The position numbers were made by a program, and so were the translations under genes. The notes beneath the pieces were generated by a model. That model did no database searches. It was not told the origin of the DNA and saw nothing but the letters and a program-made list of their open reading frames with translations. Below are positions 1-5,655 of a stretch of DNA of 64,000 bases, in pieces (within the stretch, counting starts at the first letter, position 1; every line of letters begins with the position of its first letter). The stretch is taken from positions 718,501 through 782,500 of the forward strand of contig JAAVLL010000001.1 of NCBI GenBank assembly GCA_012103035.1. The letters run 5' to 3'. The stretch comes from Brucella oryzae. GTDB lineage: Bacteria; Pseudomonadota; Alphaproteobacteria; Rhizobiales; Rhizobiaceae.

Positions 1-2349
1 CGCGTTGGGAGCAAGATGAAACCAGTTGTCTGCCGCCCGCCAGTCACCCGCATCGATGCTGACGGATTGGGCCAGAACCGGCGTTTTCAGATCGAGAAAC
101 CAGTTTCCGTTTTCTTCAACGGGCTGGGCTTCGATAGCGGCGTCGTGAAAGGCTTTCGTCCGTCCAAGCGGAAAGTGAAATGCCTCGGCAACCGTAATAT
201 CATTACGCTTCAATCGCGCGACCGTCACGTCATGCGCCGGAGGGCCAAACCGATAGGCATAAGTGACATCGAAGAAGGCACCGAACAGATCTGTCGCCGG
301 AATGGTGATGGCGGAACGGCCAGCCATTGAAAGATCGCGGCGACCGGAAACCACCGGCTGCGAACTGGCGCGCAGGCAGGCCAGTTCAAGCGAAAGATCA
401 ACGGATTCCGCCTGCTCGTTCAGAATATGAATCGCGAGGCCGTTGACGCCCTCATCGGTGAAGGCGATCTGCTGCGGGCGGAAAGCGCGTTTGAGGCCAT
501 GCCACGAAGCCTTGGGTTCGCCTGTCGCATCGATCATGCCCCAGCCGGCGCCGGGCAACAGGTCCTGAAACATCCAGAGAAGCGCGCCGAAACAGGTGCT
601 TCCCGGCCGTCTCCATTCGGCAAAGGTCGCTTCCATCACTTCAGCAGTGACAGCGCGCGAAAGGTGGAGATACTGTTCCACATCCTCGCGCCGCAGACGC
701 GCCGGATCGTAACCGTATAACATCTCCAGATAGCTATCCCGCACATCCTCGAAATCCCAGGATACGCCGCGATCACGCGGCACGCGCGACTTCCAGCGCG
801 GATCGTGAACCGGCGGCGTATCTAGATGGGTTTTCAGCGTGCGCGTTTCGGGCACGTTGGAGAAGGCGAGACATTCGGTCGCAAAGTGCACGTCTGCCCG
901 CCGCGCATCTTCCAGCGGACGGCAATAGGCGCTAACGCCGTAATAATGGCTGACACCTTCATTACTGATGAAGGGCAGGGCGCCGTTGCAGGGCGAATTC
1001 GGCACATAGGGAATGTTCGGGCATAGCGCGTTTGCGATGCCGGGCAGGATTTCCTCGGTCAGCGGACCTTTCCAGGTCGCTTCCGGCAGGCCCATCATCG
1101 CGCCCTGCTGGTAGATTTCGCTGCCGCCGCAAAGAACCGTCAGCGATGGCGCATGTCCGATGGCGGTGAGAAGCTGACGCGCTTCGGCCTGTACATTCCC
1201 GACAAATGCCTCGTCCTTCACCGGATAATCGAAATTGGCGAACATGAAGTCCTGCCACACCATGATGCCCAGTTCGTCGCAAAGCGCGTAGAAATCCGGT
1301 GTCTCGTAGGTGGTGATGCCGCTCAGGCGCAGCATGTTCATGCCCGCTTCCTGCGCGAGCTTCAGCCATGGTTCGTAATCGTCGCGTGCGCCGGGAAGGC
1401 GGACGATATCTGCGGAGCTCCATACTGCGCCGCGGCAAAATATCTTCTCGCCATTGATCCTGAGCGCAAATCCCTTGCCGTCCGACCCGTGGTCAACCTC
1501 AATGCGGCGAAAGCCGGTGCGCCCCAGCGATCGGATTTCTCCGTCGAGAGAAAGTTCAATATCGTGAAGCGTAGGATTGCCATGCGTATGCGGCCACCAT
1601 GGCTCGATATGGCAAAGTGTGAGCCTTGCCGTCCACTGATCATCGGTCTGGCGTTCGCAGGCGACCTGTTGCCCCGCACAATGGAGGGTGGGCGTTGCGG
1701 CCTTACCGCTATAAGTAAAACTGACCTGAAGTTTGCCATCGCCGGTTTCGGTCAGCATTGCCTGAATGGCGATGTCGGATATGGCTTCAGCATCGGGATG
1801 GCTGATTGAAATCGGACGCCACGGACCTGCAGCATGCACTTGCGGACACCAGCCCGGCATATAACCAAGCGCGGTCGTGCGAATGAGGCGCAGCCCCTGT
1901 GTATTCATCAGTTGCGTGCGCCAGCGGCACGCGGGCCTTTTGGGCGAGACGGGGCGCAAGCGCACGAAAACAGAGCACAAGCTCGTCCTTGCCGGTCAGG
2001 GTGACGGGCAGATTATGGCCAAGGAACATGCTGTCGGTCTGCAACAGCAATTCGCCATTGAAAAGACGTCGCATATCGTGGCAAGCCCGCCGAAATGAAG
2101 CGTGGCGGGGCCGGGCGTCTCCTCAAGATCGAGGAAATACCAGGCATCCTGATTGTCGAGCGGTACGGGGTTTTTCGGTCGAAACGCCCGGCTTTTTCAA
2201 GCGCTTCCGCCACCGTTCCGGGTACAGGAGCATCATCGATGCTGCCGCCGGACTTGGCGTGATGCGGTGTTTGCGCCGCATCCGGGCCGGTGATGACGAG
2301 CCGCCACCCGGCCTGAAGTGGGCGGCGGGTCGGATTCAGTTCGCCGCAT
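1..2349 (-). CDS. Glycoside hydrolase family 2, beta-mannosidase-like (3' end cut by window, frameshifted)
   Basis: Reading the minus strand with frame corrections gives a GH2 protein. An N-terminal sandwich domain (around GWRLVITGPDAAQTP and DAWYFLDLEETPGPATLHF) is followed by a TIM-barrel stretch MVWQDFMFANFDYPV. The LCGGSEIYQQG segment matches the acid/base Glu region of beta-mannosidases, and HFATECLAFSN matches the nucleophile Glu region. The protein still reads on at position 1, so the C-terminus lies outside the window. At least five frame changes are needed (for example near 2190, 2070, 1790, 1400). The start is uncertain: an ATG at 2349 overlaps the DUF1839 stop but needs a frame change before the conserved part. 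No signal peptide is visible, so a cytoplasmic enzyme is likely. It is last in the carrier-protein operon, and its true sugar substrate cannot be read from sequence. Confidence 0.8.
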
Positions 2350-3335
2350 CGCGACCCATTTCCGTTGCAAGCGCCGCCATCAGCCGATCCCACGCATCTG
2401 CCGCCGGTTGAAGCGTTCCGGCCAATGCATCGAACTTTTGCGCATGACGGCACGGGCCAGCTGGAACTGAACAGCCTTTGCCGTTTCCGCAATTTGCAAG
2501 GCGTCTGCCGAGGCTGTTGCAAAGCGCCTGCCTTGCCCAAGCCAGTCGAGATGACTTGCCGCGAGTTCGAAATTCGCGCCGAGCTGGCGCAGCGTGTTGA
2601 ACGCATATTTATGGAAGAAGCCGAACGGGCGTTCCGCGATTGCTTCGACCTGAGCGGGGAACACGCTGGCAAAGGCGCGGATCGGGTTTTCCTTCGGCCT
2701 GCGGGCAAAATGGCGCGGCAGAAGAATTTCGGCGACGCGTCGCTGATGCGCTTCATCCGGCACAATCTTCGGAAACTTGGCGAATTCCGTATAGGGCAGG
2801 AAGGGGAGGTCAGCGTCGGTCAGATGACGCTGGAAGACCCCGTCGAAATCCTCGCCTTCCAGATGATAGAAACCGCCATTATGGAAATAGTCGAGCGAAC
2901 GGTTTTGAACATCCATGCGATTGATGGCGATGGTCGTCTTGCCATGTTCCGTGCGGTAGCTGACGCCATGCGTATCCGGCATGAAGTAGCTGTCCATCTC
3001 AACCATGCAGAGGCGCCCCGCGCTATCTGTTCCGCGACATGGCTTTCCACACGATCAAAAATTGCAAGCTCCGTCGCCCGAACGCCATAAAGGGCTTCGA
3101 GGTCTTCCAGCGGCACCTTGAAGAAGGTGAACTGGTCGCCCTCGAAATCCTGTGTCAGCGTGAAACCGAGCATGGCTTCCGGAGCGACACCCAATGTTGC
3201 CAGTACTTCGATCCAGAGATCGACATAGCAGTTGGTTTCCGGCCAGATACGCGTCTGGGCATGCAAAGCGTGCGGCGTATAACGGTCGGGCGCGATGTTC
3301 GGAAAAACTGCCTGCATGGTCGCAATCAGCCCCAC
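2336..3335 (-). CDS. DUF1839 family protein (frameshifted)
   Basis: The product starts MGLIATMQAVFPNIAPDRY and runs through IWPETNCYVDLWIEVLATLG, GDQFTFFKVPLEDLEALYGV and YFHNGGFYHLEGEDFDGVF, which I recognise as DUF1839. This family accompanies synthetase-like amino acid:carrier protein ligases in Rhizobiales. Frame changes near 3020 and 2400 must be repaired; the repaired C-terminus reads ADAWDRLMAALATEMGRDAAN and stops at 2336. The start overlaps the stop of the ligase gene by 10 bases, which indicates translational coupling. No membrane segment or signal peptide is seen. Biochemical function is not known to me; a role downstream of the loaded carrier protein (transfer or release of the aminoacyl group) is only an inference from the operon. 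Confidence 0.78.
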
Positions 3336-4238: not shown

Positions 4239-5405
4239 TTATCCCAAAAGGCTGGTGTTCTGTTTGTGAATGAGCAGCATGGTGGCCGTATTGCCGAGAA
4301 TGCGCTCGTTTGAAATCATCAGCTGCGCGGAATGCGCGTCGCGCAGATGGCGGCCAAGGCTGAAAGGCGTGCCGTTCTTGTAGCCCATGATGCCGCAGAC
4401 CAGCATGGCGTGGTTGATGATCTGAAGGATCGTCTGCGACGCGGTAACCTTGAGGTTGTTCATCGCAATCGCAAAGCCCATCGAGGCCAGCTTGTCGGGA
4501 TAGTTCTTGGCTTCACGATAGGTCTTGAGACAGGCAATGATTTCGGATTTCAGCATCTGCAGCATGTTGGACGCTTCGGCAACACGTAAGGCGCCCGGCT
4601 GCGGCGCGCGGATTGCGCTTCGCGGCGGCGCGCACGAATGCCTGCGCCCGGTTGACCGCATCGACGGCGATGCCATACCAGAGCAGCTCACAGCGTATGC
4701 GACTGCGCCAGCATGGATTGCGCTGCGATTTCAGCGAAGGGATGTGGCAGGATCTGCACCTTGTCGGCCTCGCCGCGAAACACAAAGCCTTCCGAGCAGG
4801 TGCCGCGCATGCCGAGTGTATCCCAATCATGGGTCTTTTCGAGCGTGTACTGGTCTTTCAGGAACACGGTCATTACCTGATCCGACGACGCGGCGTCTTT
4901 GTGCGAGCGCGATGTGATCAGAATGGCATCGGCATAGGTGCCATAGGAGATGACGGTTGCGTTCTTTTCCAGCCGACAGATATCGCCCTCGACCTCGATG
5001 GCGCAGATCGAGTTGCGCAGATCGCCGCCGATGCCGCCTTCGGTCGTCGCCGAAGCCAGCAGAAGCTGGTCTTTCGCAATTCTGCGCATGAATTCCCGAT
5101 GCCATTCAACCGTCTGGCCGTGCTCCACCAGGCTTGAAAGCTTGATGTGATGCATGGCGAAGATCATCGCGCTCGATGCGCAGGACTGGCCGAGAATGCA
5201 GCACAGTTCCGCAATCTGGTCGATTTCCGCGCTCGCCACCGAGTTCACAGGGCACCTGAATGCCCAGCAGGCCTTCGGCCTTCATCGCATCGATTGCTTC
5301 ACGCGGGAAGCGGCCTTCCTTATCGACGCTATCGGAAAATTTACCCGCTATGGCCGCAACGCGGCCCACGCGCTCTGAAAGACTGTTCCCCGCCCCGGCA
5401 TTCAT
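4239..5405 (-). CDS. Acyl-CoA dehydrogenase family flavoprotein (frameshifted)
   Basis: Three overlapping reading-frame pieces together give an acyl-CoA dehydrogenase of about 388 residues. The N-terminal helical domain reads VAAIAGKFSDSVDKEGRFPREAIDAMKAEGLLGIQVP. The middle beta domain contains LLLASATTEGGIGGDLRNSICAIE, with the TEG.GGD pattern of the FAD-contacting loop. The C-terminal helical domain includes LKVTASQTILQIINHAMLVCGIMGYKNGTPFSLGRHLRDAHSAQLMISNERIL, in which the YKN..PFSLGRHLRDAHS stretch corresponds to the conserved C-terminal region. Frame changes fall near 5240 and 4690. The ATG shares one base with the carrier-protein stop (TAATG), so the two are coupled. By analogy with flavoproteins that oxidise prolyl groups on carrier proteins, the substrate may be aminoacyl-S-carrier protein rather than a CoA ester; that is inference. 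Confidence 0.85.
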
Positions 5406-5655
5406 TATGCAGCCTCTTTGTCTTTGAGAATCTGGGTGACCGTCTGTTCGATGGCCTTGATGCTCGCGAAAGACTTGCGATTGAGATACTGGTCCGGAAA
5501 TTCGATGTCGAACTTGTCTTCCAGACCGAGCATGAGCTGTACCGAGGCAAAAGACGACAGTCCTGCGCTGTAAAGATCAGCGTCGTCGGCAATGTCCGTC
5601 ACCGGCCTGGCAGGCCGCCGACCTTGGCCAAAAGTTCGCGAATGGATTCATTCAT
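5405..5655 (-). CDS. Acyl carrier protein-like aminoacyl carrier protein (one frameshift)
   Basis: A short helical carrier protein of about 83 residues after repair. It begins MNESIRELLAKVGGL at 5655 and continues as VTDIADDADLYSAGLSSFASVQ; one base is missing near 5605. The GLSSFASVQLMLGLEDKFDIEFPD segment aligns with the DSL region of carrier proteins. The second Ser (about residue 35) is the expected phosphopantetheine attachment site, and the Ser replacing Asp is typical of the carrier proteins paired with synthetase-like ligases. It is the first gene of the minus-strand operon and its stop overlaps the dehydrogenase start by one base. It should act as the swinging arm that carries the amino acid between the ligase and later enzymes. 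Confidence 0.85.

What the first reader, a model, noticed from the sequence alone, without database searches (positions are those of the whole stretch)
2336..5655. Carrier-protein operon with synthetase-like amino acid ligase, dehydrogenase and DUF1839, ending in a beta-mannosidase-like gene
Seen: carrier protein, acyl-CoA dehydrogenase, class II synthetase-like ligase without tRNA-binding arm, DUF1839 and GH2 genes in one direction, with 1-base, 5-base and overlapping junctions. Known: such ligases load glycine or alanine on the partner carrier protein, and flavoproteins of the acyl-CoA dehydrogenase fold can oxidise carrier-bound amino acids. Inference: the operon makes a modified amino acid or a small aminoacylated product, possibly attached to or released from a sugar, given the GH2 enzyme. 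The end product is unknown to me. This is the best candidate here for an undescribed pathway.
Basis: partly seen in the sequence, partly recalled or inferred. Interest (0 to 1): 0.75.

Follow-up and report, generated by a model that had tools for sequence, protein, structure and literature searches.

The report
Operon likely attaching amino acids to sugars
A conserved bacterial gene set probably loads glycine or alanine onto a small carrier protein, oxidises it, and passes it to an amine, most likely on a surface sugar; the gene set was noted in print in 2010, but a predicted structure now gives its unnamed transfer enzyme a testable job.

The parts
5405..5655 (-). Carrier protein (ACP), broken by a frame change; phosphopantetheine serine kept (GLSSF)
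   Evidence: NF005480 101.7 bits and PF00550 on piece 5405-5602; serine invariant in 103 of 103 relatives (its role is recalled); present in window piece
4239..5405 (-). Acyl-CoA-dehydrogenase-fold flavoprotein, broken into several frames; lacks the usual dehydrogenase Glu
   Evidence: PF02771 and PF00441 over cut-off, PF02770 below it, on three pieces; Glu slot is Ile in 107 and Val in 1 of 108 relatives; slot placed by alignment to 7p98
3326..4233 (-). Class II synthetase-like amino acid:[carrier protein] ligase in two frames
   Evidence: NF005479 416.7 bits (cut-off 357) on piece 3326-4021 and 76.6 bits on 4018-4233; nearest solved structures 4h2w and 3mey, Bll0957 (with the intact relative L011)
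2336..3335 (-). DUF1839, predicted carrier-protein-dependent aminoacyltransferase with likely nucleophile Cys (ETNCY), in three frames; start could be the GTG at 3335 or the ATG at 3317
   Evidence: PF08893 159.9 and 273.1 bits on two pieces; fold match of intact relatives to CcbD/CtaG/AziU3; motif present in window piece
1..2340 (-). GH2 beta-mannosidase-like enzyme, broken in its N-terminal part; both catalytic Glu positions kept; last about 95 bases lie outside the window
   Evidence: Same-genus relative L133 best matches solved beta-mannosidases (5n6u 1.8e-52); Glu 420 and 501 invariant in 100 of 100 relatives; GGSE and ATEC in window piece

Best explanation
The operon encodes a carrier-protein pathway that makes an amide between an activated (probably oxidised) amino acid and an amine, most likely an amino sugar that becomes part of a cell-surface or exported glycan. 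Steps: (1) the ligase activates Gly or Ala with ATP and loads it on the ACP's phosphopantetheine (reported in print for relatives, inferred here); (2) the flavoprotein oxidises the carrier-bound aminoacyl group, perhaps by N-oxygenation or C-N oxidation (inferred, weak); (3) DUF1839 takes the acyl group on Cys30 and passes it to the amine in ping-pong fashion, as CcbD does (inferred from fold and conservation); (4) GH2 (no obvious signal peptide by eye in four sequences) and the double alpha/beta hydrolase trim or process the glycan or glycoside (inferred, weak). In the window's own genome all genes read broken, most likely from assembly errors.
Against: I know of no measured activity of DUF1839 (one paper in the library names it). 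It has no detectable sequence similarity to CcbD-type structures, and the comparison with the BtrH_N family was not significant. Its triad may be rearranged (PMC10318531, passages), so the mechanism may differ. 13 of 35 cassette regions show no polysaccharide marker, among them the one same-genus region tested (L133); of nine DUF1839-bearing plasmid loci two do. The marker proteins were chosen from the same kind of loci (L185 and L187 are in the tested set; without them 20 of 33). In two f109 genomes the operon copy of DUF1839 has lost the Cys. The absence of the usual Glu is no proof against dehydrogenation: 7p98, a dehydrogenase, has Thr there, and some families keep the base elsewhere (recalled). 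The acceptor, the amino acid in this branch and the flavoprotein reaction are unknown.
Confidence: 0.5

Rival explanations
1. The cassette makes a small soluble product, an aminoacyl amide of an amino sugar or diamine like a lincosamide or closthioamide, and the polysaccharide neighbourhood is secondary.
For: CcbD, CtaG and AziU3, the only strong fold matches, are small-molecule enzymes (CcbD from PMC12945683, the others recalled). Phyllobacterium's copy stands with an MFS drug-type exporter and regulators and no glycosyltransferase in the listed stretch; the same-genus region L133 has no marker either. In Priestia the ACP-flavoprotein-ligase core sits with an ATP-grasp enzyme (weakly like dapdiamide synthase, below cut-off), a DMT exporter, alanine permease and alanine racemase.
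Against: 22 of 35 regions carry polysaccharide markers against 1 of 20 controls; flippase domain on the hydrolase in L094.
Confidence: 0.3
2. DUF1839 is a hydrolase (peptidase, amidase or thioesterase) that frees the carrier-bound or sugar-bound amino acid instead of forming an amide.
For: Papain-like fold, classed among cysteine proteinases (PMC10318531, passages); weaker fold rows include peptidases.
Confidence: 0.12
3. In this genome the operon is a decayed pseudogene cluster.
For: All five genes and the neighbouring hydrolase read in more than one frame.
Against: Pieces of four genes stay 91-100% identical to the intact relative apart from two stretches, ORF breakage is window-wide (0.52 against 0.72-0.96), the assembly scores 69% complete, the catalytic motifs looked for are kept, and 17 of 17 other ligase-bearing genomes of the genus have unbroken ligases.
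Confidence: 0.08

Closest known systems
Amino acid:[carrier protein] ligases (Bll0957 of Bradyrhizobium, Atu2573 of Agrobacterium; NF005479/PRK07080)
   Same: Same ligase family, over the curated cut-off; a linked flavoprotein gene is listed beside bll0957 too (bll0958)
   Different: Six 'type II' loci of unnamed, Bradyrhizobium-like genomes have ligase plus flavoprotein and no DUF1839 or GH2 hit, with a divergent carrier protein in five of the six; the window type has all in one direction. The Bll0957 genome itself was not read
Gene neighbourhood described by the 2010 note in proof of PMC2922099 (e.g. Atu2574 as amide ligase; that Atu2574 is DUF1839 is inferred)
   Same: Same kinds of genes and same broad idea: an amino acid amide-linked to a cell-surface sugar
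   Different: That note gives no fold for the amide ligase and calls the redox partner a Rossmann-fold enzyme; here the partner has the acyl-CoA dehydrogenase fold without the usual Glu, and the hydrolase and flippase links are added
CcbD/LmbD (lincosamide), CtaG (closthioamide), AziU3 (azinomycin) acyltransferase fold
   Same: Whole-length fold, Cys near the N-terminus, carrier-protein partner
   Different: 11-14% identity, no sequence-level match, possibly rearranged triad, synthetase-like loader in place of an NRPS adenylation domain
Carrier-bound amino acid dehydrogenases of the acyl-CoA dehydrogenase fold (CaeB1/ColB1, prolyl-ACP dehydrogenases)
   Same: Same fold; act on aminoacyl groups tethered to a carrier protein
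   Different: CaeB1 uses a Glu base (E372; E372L is inactive, PMC8149447, passages); that this is the slot held by Ile/Val here is inferred, as CaeB1 was not aligned
Nitrososynthases DnmZ and KijD3 (flavin N-oxygenases)
   Same: Best single-sequence PDB match (DnmZ 4.1e-16) and top Foldseek row (KijD3)

Membership tests
Amino acid:[carrier protein] ligase (NF005479) | Score over curated cut-off | tested here: met
   Piece 3326-4021 alone 416.7 bits, cut-off 357
Amino acid:[carrier protein] ligase (NF005479) | Synthetase core without tRNA-binding arm | tested here: met
   Piece aligns to positions 311-504 of 518 of the serine--tRNA ligase model NF002120 only; intact relative L133 is 302 aa
Amino acid:[carrier protein] ligase (NF005479) | Cys/Glu/Cys zinc site (role recalled) | tested here: met
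   C121, E166, C269 invariant in 111 of 111; motifs in window piece
Amino acid:[carrier protein] ligase (NF005479) | Loads Gly or Ala on the partner carrier protein | not testable with these tools
   Reported for relatives (PMC5370406, passage)
CcbD/CtaG/AziU3 carrier-protein-dependent amide-forming acyltransferases | Whole-length fold | tested here: met
CcbD/CtaG/AziU3 carrier-protein-dependent amide-forming acyltransferases | Nucleophile Cys at the start of the core helix | tested here: met
   Cys30 at helix 30-41; 33 of 34 rows, one genome's second copy counted twice and its Cys-less operon copy read apart
CcbD/CtaG/AziU3 carrier-protein-dependent amide-forming acyltransferases | Cys-His-Glu/Asp triad in that order | tested here: inconclusive
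   H125 and H146 invariant in 34 of 34 but geometry not measured; PMC10318531 reports a swapped C(T/S)H triad
CcbD/CtaG/AziU3 carrier-protein-dependent amide-forming acyltransferases | Sequence-level similarity to known members | tested here: not met
   Profile A2 against PDB sequences: one hit at E up to 10, a cysteine protease at 0.097, none of these enzymes. Hence 'works like', not 'is a member'
Acyl-CoA dehydrogenase (catalytic) | Fold | tested here: met
Acyl-CoA dehydrogenase (catalytic) | Catalytic Glu in the usual C-terminal slot | tested here: not met
   Ile 107, Val 1 of 108; slot placed by alignment to 7p98, which has Thr there itself; a base elsewhere not excluded
GH2 beta-mannosidase | GH2 domains and both catalytic Glu | tested here: met
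   GH2 and Ig_mannosidase domains in relative L133, beta-mannosidases as best structures, E420 and E501 in 100 of 100; sugar specificity untested
Exosortase-A-associated hydrolases 1 and 2 (TIGR03100, TIGR03101) | Score over curated cut-off | tested here: not met
   78.8 of 168.45 and 63.4 of 202.75 bits for L133: related, not members

The most novel reading that the evidence does not exclude
A pathway of a new type: a tRNA-synthetase-like ligase feeds glycine or alanine to a free-standing carrier protein, an acyl-CoA-dehydrogenase-fold flavoenzyme without the usual base N-oxidises the tethered amino acid (for example to N-hydroxyglycyl or glyoxylyl), and a proteobacterial CcbD-like transferase installs this unusual acyl group on an amino sugar of an exported, perhaps mannose-containing polysaccharide: a surface decoration I do not recall from any polymer (not searched for). 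The probability was lowered from 0.17 to 0.15 on re-check, because 7p98 shows that a dehydrogenase can lack the Glu in that slot.
Probability: 0.15. Interest if true: 0.85.

Novelty: new variant of a known kind. Interest (0 to 1): 0.6.

Why it matters
A 2022 review (PMC9437257, section read) states that the biological role of loading amino acids on carrier proteins by synthetase-like ligases remains unknown. A named transferase with a solved structural relative (CcbD), a nucleophile to mutate and a guess at the acceptor turn that question into a short in vitro experiment. LmbD/CcbD was described in 2015 as having no similarity to any database sequence (PMC4351081, passages); DUF1839 would give that fold a proteobacterial branch tied to surface glycans, with copies on rhizobial plasmids.

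Tried and rejected
Tried without result: profile comparison DUF1839 against BtrH_N (probability 1.4); profile search of PDB sequences with DUF1839; telling monooxygenase from dehydrogenase by fold (VIA Z tied at 34-37; Foldseek put KijD3 and TdsC first); naming the window's organism (no named close record, whose answers warn that near records may be left out). Anti-phage defence models: one partial GH2 hit to a CARF/beta-galactosidase model, not pursued. Atu2573 appears as a hub gene in a transcriptome paper (PMC11941606, passage), not used. First gene calls in the type II loci picked antisense ORFs and were redone with a GC-position rule. Rejected: pseudogene cluster as the reading for the family; GH2 as a chance neighbour (123 of 123). 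Held doubtful, not rejected: dehydrogenation by another base. EF-P genes upstream were set aside as a shared chromosomal place.

Counts to read with care: up to 79 of the 123 loci are Rhizobium-type loci chosen as closest matches. In the 34-row DUF1839 alignment one genome's second copy was counted twice and its Cys-less operon copy left out by the script, then read apart. GH2 in L123 is a fragment (158 bits) and DUF1839 in L145 is split in two hits, yet both count as present. The 49-of-49 and 16-of-16 overlaps were read off the two lists by eye and typed into. Control regions were placed at round coordinates chosen by me.
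Full report
What is there. On the minus strand of the window's left end lie pieces of a carrier protein, an acyl-CoA-dehydrogenase-fold flavoprotein, a class II synthetase-like ligase, DUF1839 and a GH2 enzyme. The family hits were made on separate pieces: NF005480 101.7 bits, NF005479 416.7 bits over its cut-off of 357, PF08893 159.9 and 273.1 bits. The stated span holds ACP to DUF1839; GH2 lies to its left and passes the window end by about 95 bases. 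In the same genome a double alpha/beta hydrolase follows, convergent, outside the window.

State of the genes. Every gene reads in more than one frame. The genome is 4.86 Mb in 6 contigs but scores 69% complete. ORFs of 250 aa or more cover 0.52 of the window against 0.72-0.96 in eight loci of other genomes. Pieces of ACP, flavoprotein, ligase and DUF1839 are 91-100% identical to the intact same-genus relative L133 apart from two stretches at 50% and 67%; GH2 and hydrolase pieces 71-89%. The catalytic motifs looked for are present. Of 35 genomes of the genus 18 have the ligase, and the 17 other than the window's have it without internal stops. Assembly error is the likelier cause.

Conservation. 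In a sample of 297 genomes of the order the ligase is in 70 (64 over cut-off) and DUF1839 in 49, all 49 also ligase genomes with the two genes adjacent on one contig (lists compared by eye). In a phylum sample of 398, which partly overlaps the first, the figures are 44 (28 over cut-off) and 16, again 16 of 16. Among loci of 8 kb or more, 123 have ligase plus co-directional DUF1839; GH2 and the flavoprotein are on the same strand in 123 of 123, ACP in 121 (in the other two, L033 and L086, the contig begins near the ligase), the double hydrolase within 9 kb in 81 (49 same strand); DUF1839-GH2 median distance 8 bases. These loci are not independent, and a few genes counted are fragments or split (L123, L145). 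The cassette is patchy within the genus (18 of 35) and occurs on plasmids of Phyllobacterium, Rhizobium, Shinella, Azospirillum, Mycetohabitans and Caballeronia, so it looks mobile.

Other arrangements. Six loci of unnamed Bradyrhizobium-like genomes have flavoprotein and ligase together, with no DUF1839 or GH2 hit; a carrier protein stands divergent in five of the six. bll0957 (ligase) and bll0958 (flavoprotein) are both listed at a fold change of 3.0 in a phaR mutant (PMC10888616, passage). A Priestia plasmid has ACP synthase, ACP, flavoprotein and ligase next to a DMT exporter, an ATP-grasp enzyme, alanine permease and alanine racemase. A Tsukamurella plasmid has ligase, ACP, phosphopantetheinyl transferase and glycosyltransferases but no flavoprotein hit. 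ACP, flavoprotein and ligase thus look like a core that different pathways use.

Flavoprotein. The single-sequence PDB search puts DnmZ first (4.1e-16); the profile search puts two dehydrogenases, 7p98 and 9w60, ahead of DnmZ (3.7e-24, 2.1e-22, 4.3e-21). Foldseek ranks KijD3 and TdsC first, VIA ties dehydrogenases and monooxygenases. The usual catalytic Glu slot is Ile in 107 and Val in 1 of 108 sequences; the Priestia row and the four type II rows shown have Ile. In CaeB1, which dehydrogenates carrier-bound cysteine, changing its catalytic Glu to Leu kills activity (PMC8149447, passages; that this is the same slot is inferred). Against this, 7p98, titled a dehydrogenase, has Thr in the slot, so a base elsewhere cannot be excluded. 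The reported substrates Gly or Ala (PMC5370406, passage) argue against alpha,beta-dehydrogenation for Gly. I infer a different oxidation; which one is open.

Link to glycans. Nine polysaccharide marker proteins were searched in regions of about 15-20 kb: hits in 22 of 35 whole-genome cassette regions, 1 of 20 control regions that I placed in 20 of the same genomes, 1 of 6 type II loci, and 3 of 11 plasmid loci (2 of the 9 with DUF1839, plus Tsukamurella) (Fisher p 1.6e-5 for 22/35 against 1/20, 3.7e-5 without the two query-source loci). Of 77 named Rhizobium-type loci 45 have at least one, but these share a chromosomal place. The double hydrolase resembles exosortase-A-associated hydrolases below cut-off; in 33 Rhizobium-type loci it belongs to a cluster of about 1,100-aa proteins, of which the one scanned (L094) has a flippase domain. 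Against this, 13 of 35 regions, the same-genus region L133 among them, have no such marker, and the Phyllobacterium plasmid has an MFS exporter instead.

What is known already. A neighbourhood of ligase, ACP, redox enzyme, conserved ORF, glycosidase and liposaccharide genes, and the amino-acid-to-sugar idea, were printed in 2010 (PMC2922099, section read). The ligase biochemistry paper (Mocibob 2010) is not held and is known here only through others. So the operon is not new; the fold-based mechanism for DUF1839, the missing usual Glu in the flavoprotein, the hydrolase and flippase link and the counted association are what this work adds.

Noticed in passing
L094:5470-8298 and equivalents: In 64-70 of the loci members of three gene clusters lie just upstream of the operon; in L094, the one scanned, they are EF-P, EpmA and a lysine-2,3-aminomutase-like protein, so two synthetase-derived ligases stand near each other; probably one ancestral chromosomal place.
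   Followed up: partly
L124:8248-24182: On a Rhizobium gallicum plasmid the cassette lies between an ACC deaminase gene and the nif cluster.
   Followed up: no
L131:2866-16689: Priestia plasmid cluster with ACP synthase, ACP, flavoprotein, aa:CP ligase, ATP-grasp enzyme, DMT exporter, alanine permease and racemase and a D-alanine--D-alanine ligase gene: looks like an uncharacterised small-molecule cluster.
   Followed up: partly
   Followed up: partly
L189, L190, L191, L192, L194: Distant ligase relatives, mostly about 400 aa, with no flavoprotein or DUF1839 hit; in the phylum sample 16 of 44 ligase genomes are below the family cut-off. L192 has ligase, reductase-like, ACP, AMP-binding and MMPL genes in a row.
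   Followed up: no
window 9988-11555: Stretch 77-82% identical to IS1182 family transposase genes of rhizobial and Aminobacter plasmids.
   Followed up: no
window 1-64000: ORFs are short across the whole window; gene counts or pseudogene claims from this assembly should be treated with care.
   Followed up: partly
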